Source of the DNA: Streptococcaceae bacterium AF54-32pH5A | Lineage (GTDB): Bacteria > Bacillota > Bacilli > Lactobacillales > Streptococcaceae | NCBI GenBank assembly: GCA_027682205.1 | Contig: JAQDAD010000004.1 | Location: 47,340 to 111,339, forward strand | Reading direction: 5' to 3' | DNA: 64,000 nt | In this document: positions 53,113 through 53,865 of the stretch, one piece after another | Position numbering within the stretch: position 1 is the first letter of the stretch | Layout of the letters: each line of letters starts with the position of its first letter | Notes under the pieces: generated by a model | Databases searched by the model: none | Told to the model about the DNA's origin: nothing | What the model saw: only the letters and a program-made list of their open reading frames with translations | Program-made: the position numbers and the translations under genes

Positions 53113-53148
53113 GAATTTGAACCATTCGAAACAACATAGCTCTATAAC
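53113..53148 (-). CRISPR. Solitary type II-A CRISPR repeat (36 nt)
   Basis: Read on the minus strand the 36 bases start GTTATAGAGCTATG and continue TTGTTTCGAATGGTTC. By memory of the S. thermophilus CRISPR3 repeat, 31 of 36 positions agree; the changes gather at the 3' end, as in leader-distal terminal repeats. No second repeat lies within 30-40 bases on either side. It could still pair with the tracrRNA at 53560 with one mismatch over the upper stem. Confidence 0.88.
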
Positions 53149-53224
53149 TAGGAAATATTGATACTATCAACTCCATACATCCTACATAGACAGTTTACCT
53201 AATGTTTTTTAATATTCTTCAAAA

Positions 53225-53512
53225 CTATATCTTATACAAATTATTTAATCTTTCTAACTCTAATACATTCATACATACTTCTACTCCAGTAACTACCCCC
53301 TTGCTATGAATAAATCCACAAGAAAACACAATCCTCTCCTTACTCAAAATATTTGACAATACTACTAATGCTTCTAAAACATAATCCTCTATGGTAATAA
53401 AACTATTGTTTTCATCTTTGAAAAACTTTATAAATCCAATATCCTTACACCTATCACCAAAATAAAACCTAAGTGATTTTAAATAATAATCAAAAAACAC
53501 ATCAATCTCCAT
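53225..53512 (-). CDS. Small unknown protein between a CRISPR repeat and tracrRNA
   Basis: 95 residues from the ATG at 53512, with GAAGGGGG before it (five-residue longer frame rejected). Contains MEIDVFFDYYLKSLRFYFG, three cysteines, and a hydrophobic VLEALVVLSNIL helix, no membrane segment or signal. Not Cas9, Cas1, Cas2 or Csn2 by eye, and not a family I know. It occupies the place cas genes would have in a II-A locus: divergent from tracrRNA, upstream of the repeat. Its mRNA would run through the repeat to the terminator at 53079. Very AT-rich. Confidence 0.6.
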   Translation of the reverse strand: MEIDVFFDYYLKSLRFYFGDRCKDIGFIKFFKDENNSFITIEDYVLEALVVLSNILSKERIVFSCGFIHSKGVVTGVEVCMNVLELERLNNLYKI

Positions 53513-53541
53513 AGAAACCCCCTTCATTTTTAAAATATTCT

Positions 53542-53571
53542 GTTATATCATACAAAAAAGTTTTGGAACCA
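53542..53571 (-). promoter_or_regulatory. Promoter of the small gene, overlapping the tracrRNA 5' end
   Basis: Minus-strand extended -10 TGA-TATAAC at 53542-53550, about 30 bases before the ATG. Its -35 region falls inside the tracrRNA anti-repeat (53564-53571). Divergent overlap is seen directly; regulation by the RNA is inference. Confidence 0.55.
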
Positions 53572-53648
53572 TTCGAAACAACACAGCGAGTTAAAATAAG
53601 GCTTTATCCGTACACAACTTGAAAAAGTGAGCACGATTCGGTGTTTTT
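53560..53648 (+). ncRNA. tracrRNA of type II-A (Cas9) kind
   Basis: Anti-repeat GAACCATTCGAAACAACA and CAGCGAGTTAAAATAAGG, then a nexus (GGCTTTATCCGT), hairpin ACTT-GAAA-AAGT and a final CACGATTCGGTG hairpin with TTTTTT, in the order and spacing of Cas9 tracrRNAs. Compared from memory with S. thermophilus CRISPR3, the last stem has lost one C and the nexus loop differs. No cas9 is in the window. Confidence 0.9.
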
Positions 53649-53865
53649 TACTTTATTATACTAACTTAGTATACTCCTATTTTTATAAAAAGCAAACAGA
53701 AGTATAGTGCTTTCACAAAATTTTGCAAATAATTAGAGATAAGTGTGGGAACTGCTCGACCTATCGATTCTTTTCTTCGATGATAGGCAAAGTACAGGGG
53801 TGAGATGAGTGCAAATAAAAAAAGAACTAGGATAGTAACCACCCTAGTTCTTCTTTTGTTATAGA
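53649..53865. other. Intergenic stretch between tracrRNA and galU
   Basis: No gene. It contains an inverted repeat CCTATC / GATAGG (53760-53787) and a hairpin AAGAACTAGG / CCTAGTTCTT (53821-53852) that should terminate galU on the minus strand. Confidence 0.7.

What the first reader, a model, noticed from the sequence alone, without database searches (positions are those of the whole stretch)
53113..53648. Cas-less type II-A unit: tracrRNA and one CRISPR repeat around a single unknown gene
Seen: a full-length tracrRNA (plus), a 36-nt degenerate repeat (minus), and between them one small minus-strand ORF, with no cas9/cas1/cas2/csn2. The geometry is that of a II-A locus in which cas genes and array have been replaced by the ORF. 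Known: CreTA modules use crRNA-like RNAs to hold down toxins, and solitary repeats can act as RNA anti-CRISPRs. Inference: this is either a relic after deletion, or a Cas9-dependent regulated cassette kept in place by a cas9 elsewhere.
Basis: partly seen in the sequence, partly recalled or inferred. Interest (0 to 1): 0.9.

Follow-up and report, generated by a model that had tools for sequence, protein, structure and literature searches.

The report
Whole gene lodged as CRISPR spacer
A small intact gene found on streptococcal plasmids sits between two CRISPR repeats as an oversized last spacer, and here it is what remains, with a tracrRNA, after the CRISPR-Cas9 genes were deleted, which suggests that CRISPR arrays can trap and keep whole genes.

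Summary
Window 53113-53651 holds a tracrRNA, a degenerate terminal II-A repeat and a 95-aa ORF, without cas genes. The ORF did not replace the cas operon. It is the last "spacer" of the lost array: 411 bp between two direct repeats, the upstream one fused to the tracrRNA anti-repeat. Nineteen of 31 close copies are repeat-ORF-repeat. One, in S. parasanguinis S32, still lies inside a II-A locus with cas9-cas1-cas2-csn2 and 30 regular repeats. Twelve of 74 cas-bearing II-A loci lie at galU-rhomboid; the window is such a locus collapsed by recombination between anti-repeat and repeat. On plasmids the ORF is divergent from a secreted-protein gene, and its 3' edge is followed by TGGCG or TGGAG, the NGGNG motif recalled for this Cas9 class. 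Four of four single-contig genomes with this cassette lack cas9, so a Cas9-dependent cassette is unsupported. ORF function is unproven; an orphan immunity gene is my best guess. The searches found no report of genes as spacers.

The parts
53113..53148 (-). Terminal (leader-distal) degenerate II-A CRISPR repeat, downstream edge of the giant spacer
   Evidence: 4 mismatches of 36 to consensus; the flank beyond it resembles the trailer flank printed for galU-rhomboid II-A loci
53149..53559 (-). Giant spacer, 411 bp (413 bp in the S32 locus): ORF promoter region, ORF, 3' tail
   Evidence: lies between the two repeats; in plasmid copies the sequence continues differently beyond both edges, without repeats
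53225..53512 (-). 95-aa ORF (stop included); 100 aa if started at 53527; predicted alpha-beta-beta-alpha-beta-beta-alpha fold
   Evidence: ORF list; 288 homologues, 120 listed; AlphaFold2 mean pLDDT 91; no Pfam match, only weak PHROG and NCBIfam hits
53542..53550 (-). Extended -10-like TGATATAAC, possible ORF promoter
   Evidence: read by eye; not found by the strict scan
53149..53168 (-). 20-nt guide-like 3' end of the giant spacer (GATAGTATCAATATTTCCTA), 1 mismatch to the plasmid protospacer
53560..53595 (-). Hybrid repeat: tracrRNA anti-repeat at one end, array-repeat sequence (TTCCAAAAC) at the other; deletion junction
   Evidence: 16 of 16 cas9-bearing loci printed read CCAACA here; the window reads CCAAAAC
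53561..53651 (+). tracrRNA left from the lost II-A operon
   Evidence: RF02348 90.5 bits

Best explanation
The window holds a collapsed type II-A CRISPR-Cas9 locus whose last spacer was a whole gene. Step 1 (inferred from the PAM-like edge and the flanking repeats): a 413-bp piece of a small streptococcal plasmid, carrying the promoter and 95-aa ORF of a divergent secreted-protein/ORF pair, was integrated as an over-long spacer by the II-A adaptation machinery. Step 2 (shown in S32): it sat as the leader-distal unit of an array with a cas operon. Step 3 (shown by junctions): recombination between the tracrRNA anti-repeat and the repeat next to the giant spacer deleted cas9-cas1-cas2-csn2, leader and remaining array, leaving tracrRNA, hybrid repeat, ORF and terminal repeat. 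Step 4 (inferred): the ORF is expressed from its own promoter and kept because it protects against the plasmid's secreted product or another shared hazard, while tracrRNA and terminal repeat are remnants.
For: S32 locus with cas9, cas1, cas2, csn2, 30 regular repeats and the ORF as last, 413-bp unit. Repeat-flanked form in 19 of 31 close copies, with several different flanks. Twelve of 74 cas-bearing II-A loci at galU-rhomboid, with trailer flanks like the window's. Hybrid junctions. A collapse without ORF, L203, at the same site by a like route. Plasmid copies continue past both edges, the 3' edge followed by TGGCG or TGGAG; NGGNG occurs at 0.9% and NGG at 3.6% of positions on two of these plasmids. 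A GBS strain gained an ordinary II-A spacer matching pDRPIS7493 over 30/30 bases (PMC5641575, passages). S. pyogenes Cas1-Cas2 alone integrates unprocessed lengths in vitro, and 30-45 bp spacers still immunise (PMC8034620, passages and section 18). No stop in 31 close copies, 8.7 expected if neutral.
Against: Only one cas-bearing locus with the ORF was found, 1 of 74. Normal II-A machinery trims to 30 bp (PMC8034620). The PAM argument is one plasmid lineage and so one independent case; the PAM of this Cas9 was recalled, not tested. Edges vary by a few bases between copies. The ORF tree is unresolved and embedded and free copies intermix, so one capture is assumed. dN/dS is only 0.61. The guide is perfect to the plasmid in 3 of 19 embedded copies, and its last base differs in 4. 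Donors of the two other giant spacers were not found. No giant spacer in 33 arrays of the shorter-Cas9 class, one 2803-bp gap there not read. The immunity role rests on gene neighbourhood alone.
Confidence: 0.68

Rival explanations
1. Purely neutral relic: a mis-acquired long spacer that persists only because terminal spacers are rarely lost; the ORF does nothing for the host.
For: Terminal spacers are known to be stable (PMC8047081, passages); dN/dS 0.61 embedded and 0.55 free.
Against: 0 stops against 4.45 expected in 19 embedded copies (p 0.012) and 8.7 in all 31 (p 0.0002, recombination ignored); ORF kept with several different upstream junctions.
Confidence: 0.2
2. A mobile cassette of its own kind that uses or targets CRISPR repeats as its termini and inserts at repeats in several loci.
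For: Same repeat-ORF-repeat unit with several different flanks; near-identical edges in the embedded copies.
Against: No second ORF of 40 aa or more, so no recombinase gene, between the window's repeats; plasmid copies lack repeats; upstream flanks are an array, a tracrRNA or another CRISPR repeat type in 12 of 19 embedded copies, and an IS-like hairpin in the other seven.
Confidence: 0.1
3. The ORF is an anti-CRISPR; captured by accident it silenced Cas9 and caused CRISPR decay.
For: cas9 in 4 of 30 ORF-positive against 107 of 254 ORF-negative genomes, Fisher p 0.0025 (phylogeny not controlled).
Against: S32 keeps a full II-A operon plus three ORF copies; pairing with a secreted protein, also beside a distant homologue, 32-34% identical; the depletion also follows from the deletion mechanism itself.
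Confidence: 0.07
4. CreTA-like or tracr-L-like circuit: repeat-derived RNA with tracrRNA and a Cas9 represses the ORF.
For: Degenerate repeat, tracrRNA and small gene in one unit.
Against: No cas9 found in 16 of 18 genomes with embedded copies; no NGG site in the whole window whose last 8 bases match the guide or that has 5 or fewer mismatches to it; the CreTA abstracts listed that name a type concern type I.
Confidence: 0.03

Closest known systems
Type II-A CRISPR-Cas locus of the S. thermophilus CRISPR3 / S. mutans class (class name recalled)
   Same: tracrRNA, repeats, trailer flank, galU-rhomboid position in 12 of 74 cas-bearing loci
   Different: cas genes, leader and ordinary spacers are gone; the one retained unit is 411 bp instead of 30 bp and codes for a protein
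Ordinary CRISPR spacer
   Same: sits between two direct repeats, matches a plasmid, PAM-like motif at its 3' edge, guide-like last 20 nt
   Different: about 14 times too long, carries an intact gene with a promoter-like sequence
CreTA modules (starts of abstracts of PMC9458426, PMC10097628 and PMC8501985)
   Same: small gene beside degenerate CRISPR repeats
   Different: no effector gene found in most carriers, no self-target in the window, type II instead of type I
Racr / solitary repeat units of phages (PMC10651486, passages)
   Same: repeat outside an array without cas genes
   Different: chromosomal deletion scar with tracrRNA; the repeat is the old terminal repeat of an array
Integron gene cassettes (recalled)
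   Same: whole gene captured at a recombination site and kept in an array
   Different: no integrase or attC seen; capture would be by the CRISPR integrase

Membership tests
Type II-A CRISPR-Cas locus | cas9-cas1-cas2-csn2 present | tested here: not met
   no hit in the window; present in the S32 homologue
Type II-A CRISPR-Cas locus | tracrRNA with matching anti-repeat | tested here: met
   RF02348 90.5 bits
CRISPR spacer | flanked by direct repeats inside an array | tested here: met
   S32 locus L024/L075: 30 regular repeats, giant unit, terminal repeat; in the window only the two flanking repeats remain
CRISPR spacer | derived from a mobile element next to a PAM | tested here: inconclusive
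   NGGNG follows the edge in 3 of 3 plasmids that keep the region, but they are one lineage and the PAM is recalled
CRISPR spacer | length about 30 bp | tested here: not met
   411-413 bp; 1413 conventional spacers of 25-40 bp in 74 loci
CRISPR spacer | transcribed and processed to a crRNA | not testable with these tools
   needs small-RNA sequencing
CreTA | repeat-derived guide matches the toxin promoter | tested here: not met
   no qualifying NGG site in the window
CreTA | cognate CRISPR effector in the cell | tested here: inconclusive
   not found in 16 of 18 embedded genomes; window assembly not held
CreTA | the small gene is a toxin | not tested
   no assay
Racr / solitary repeat unit | carried by a virus or plasmid | tested here: not met
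   chromosomal galU-rhomboid site; no ORF match in phages or viral contigs; plasmid copies lack the repeat
Bacteriocin-type immunity protein | protects against a cognate secreted toxin | not testable with these tools
   divergent secreted neighbour on four plasmids or plasmid-like contigs and in distant L022; no family match above cut-off

The most novel reading that the evidence does not exclude
CRISPR adaptation works as an occasional gene-capture system: an over-long prespacer brings in a complete, expressed gene of the invader, so that one 'spacer' gives both an anti-plasmid guide (its last 20 nt) and a protein that neutralises the invader's product; such units end up terminal, survive loss of the CRISPR system and persist as chromosomal orphan genes.
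Probability: 0.3. Interest if true: 0.9.

Novelty: new variant of a known kind. Interest (0 to 1): 0.72.

Why it matters
Spacers are thought of as 30-bp guide memories. A conserved, intact gene lodged as a spacer in many streptococci, with PAM-like and flanking-repeat signs of CRISPR acquisition, would mean that CRISPR arrays can take up whole genes, and that array position and repeat recombination can turn captured plasmid genes into fixed chromosomal genes. It also shows a simple route of II-A loss, recombination between tracrRNA anti-repeat and array repeat, which leaves tracrRNA-bearing scars that can be mistaken for new regulatory modules.

Full report
WHAT IS THERE. Window 53113-53651 holds, from left to right: a degenerate II-A repeat on the minus strand (53113-53148; 4 of 36 mismatches), a 95-aa minus-strand ORF (53225-53512), and a tracrRNA on the plus strand (53561-53651; RF02348, 90.5 bits). 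Nothing matches Cas9, Cas1, Cas2 or Csn2 of the S32 locus. The first part of the tracrRNA, its anti-repeat, reads on the minus strand as a repeat in the same direction as the terminal repeat, so the ORF is flanked by two direct repeats with 411 bp between them.

THE STRUCTURE RECURS. The ORF family was found in 30 of 284 Streptococcus genomes and in 288 proteins of a large metagenome-rich collection (120 listed). I examined 31 close copies: 29 from 26 genomes, the window and plasmid pDRPIS7493; homologues in G015, G148, G162 and G163 are distant or partial and were left out of that count. Nineteen copies have repeats on both sides, counting anti-repeats and allowing 13 mismatches; three (L020, L079, L081) have one only downstream; nine have neither. 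The nine are four small plasmids or plasmid-like contigs (S. infantis DD18, strain k-402, S. pseudopneumoniae pDRPIS7493, S. parasanguinis 30.8.10) and five other copies.

THE KEY LOCUS. In S. parasanguinis S32 (L024/L075) the order is cas9, cas1, cas2, csn2, a leader-like stretch, 30 regular repeats with 29 spacers, then 413 bp with the ORF, then a terminal repeat. The ORF therefore occupies the place of the last spacer. L074 supports this: anti-repeat, one 30-bp spacer, repeat, ORF unit, repeat. S32 is the only one of 74 cas-bearing loci with the ORF.

HOW THE WINDOW AROSE. I fetched all 74 places with the long Cas9 (most 1350-1460 aa; one partial, two with a stop); broken or lower-scoring ones were not fetched in this set. 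Twelve have both galU and rhomboid beside them, with the order galU, cas genes, array, rhomboid printed for nine. In the 30 genomes whose rhomboid is closest to the window's, the interval holds II-A repeats in 13 (one of them, L221, a single repeat), the ORF unit in 4, a lone repeat-like hit without ORF in 2 (L203, L204), and no repeat in 11, of which 7 keep the tracrRNA 3' hairpin. In 16 of 16 cas9-bearing loci printed the anti-repeat runs into CCAACA, whereas the window and L012, L013, L065, L068 and L069 read CCAAAAC and L014 reads CACAAAAC, which is repeat sequence. L203 shows a collapse with no ORF and a terminal-repeat-like end; the L204 junction was not printed. So the operon and array were most simply lost by recombination between anti-repeat and the repeat next to the ORF. 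Other routes also occur: L017 and L072 join a second repeat type upstream, and seven copies have a hairpin flank that looks like an insertion-sequence end (the latter naming is recalled).

WHERE THE ORF CAME FROM. On all four plasmids, and in the distant locus L022 (ORF 32-34% identical), the ORF is divergent from a secreted protein of about 152 aa (51% identity between L022 and the plasmid protein). In embedded copies that neighbour is missing: homology stops at the repeat, give or take a few bases (TTATTTTTTG at the 5' edge, shortened in the window; TTTCCTA at the 3' edge). On DD18, k-402 and pDRPIS7493 the sequence continues after TTTCCTA with TGGCG, TGGCG and TGGAG. NGGNG, which I recall as the motif of S. 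thermophilus CRISPR3, occurs at 0.9% and NGG at 3.6% of positions on L064 and L030. The three plasmids are one lineage, so this counts once. The fourth plasmid and copies L076, L077 and L080 lack a 95-base stretch with this edge (aligned; L078 reads the same by eye). In S32, which has cas9, the only site within two mismatches of the consensus guide is the one in the array. A Group B Streptococcus study reports a newly gained ordinary II-A spacer matching pDRPIS7493 over 30/30 bases (PMC5641575; passages), so this plasmid family is a real II-A target.

COULD A SPACER BE THAT LONG? In the S. pyogenes system the Cas9-integrase supercomplex trims to 30 bp, whereas Cas1-Cas2 alone integrated unprocessed substrates in vitro, and spacers of 30-45 bp still immunised (PMC8034620; passages and section 18). 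In the survey, 3 of 67 long-Cas9 arrays with three or more repeat hits have a giant spacer that I accept: S32 (413 bp), L093 (534 bp, 102-aa ORF) and L121 (204 bp, 40-aa ORF), all in terminal position (chance about 0.0003 if position were random; the L121 array contains runs of N and one spurious repeat hit). None was seen in 33 arrays of the shorter-Cas9 class (one 71-bp spacer, and one 2803-bp gap in L265 not read). Terminal spacers are in any case the most stable (PMC8047081; passages), which would explain the position without selection.

DOES THE ORF DO ANYTHING? No stop codon was found in the 31 close copies; 8.7 would be expected on the gene tree if neutral, and 4.45 in the 19 embedded copies (recombination ignored). 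dN/dS is 0.61 in embedded and 0.55 in free copies, only modest constraint. The model is a confident small alpha/beta fold without clear relatives; the secreted partner is a predicted beta-sandwich. No family library names either above its cut-off. In L082 and L066 the secreted gene is degraded while the ORF stays open, which suggests use without the partner. My best guess is an immunity or antidote gene. This is inference.

IS CAS9 INVOLVED NOW? Cas9 is found over the cut-off in 111 of 284 genomes, in 4 of 30 with the ORF and in 2 of 18 with a repeat-flanked ORF: S32, and G182, whose Cas9 is 25.5% identical to that of S32 over the aligned part. It is not found in the four single-contig genomes with the window's cassette. 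The guide has no qualifying NGG site in the window. The tracrRNA in the window lacks one base in its last hairpin, though tracrRNAs of other carriers look sound (L014, the locus also held as L023, scores 98.6 bits). Present use of tracrRNA or repeat is unlikely but not excluded, because the window's own assembly is not held.

NOVELTY. Searches for giant or over-long spacers and genes in arrays listed no description of whole genes as spacers; the library lacks most subscription papers. The parts are known kinds; the arrangement is a new variant.

Noticed in passing
L093 10173-10706 in array orientation (G105): Second giant spacer, 534 bp, terminal, with an intact 102-aa membrane-anchored-looking ORF whose distant homologues occur in tandem in other streptococci.
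   Followed up: partly
L121 (G153), last unit of the array: Third giant spacer, 204 bp, terminal, with a 40-aa hydrophobic ORF; no donor found.
   Followed up: partly
L112 and L140: An ndk gene followed by a second leader-like sequence lies next to II-A repeats; in L112 it lies between two arrays (gene name recalled).
   Followed up: no
L203 (G035), galU-rhomboid interval: tracrRNA fused to a terminal-repeat-like sequence without ORF, followed by what looks like an IS200/IS605-type transposase gene (naming recalled).
   Followed up: no
L017, L072: Two different II-A repeat types abut: the upstream array or repeat is GTTTTTGTACTC-type, and the ORF unit follows with the other type.
   Followed up: partly
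L063, L076, L077, L080: A 95-base stretch holding the protospacer edge and PAM is missing in these free copies, including one in the Cas9-positive S32 genome (L077); target-site escape is one reading, a later insertion in the plasmid lineage another.
   Followed up: partly
L020, L079, L081: Hybrid copies: plasmid-type upstream side, CRISPR terminal repeat downstream, as if plasmid-type and array copies recombined within the ORF.
   Followed up: partly
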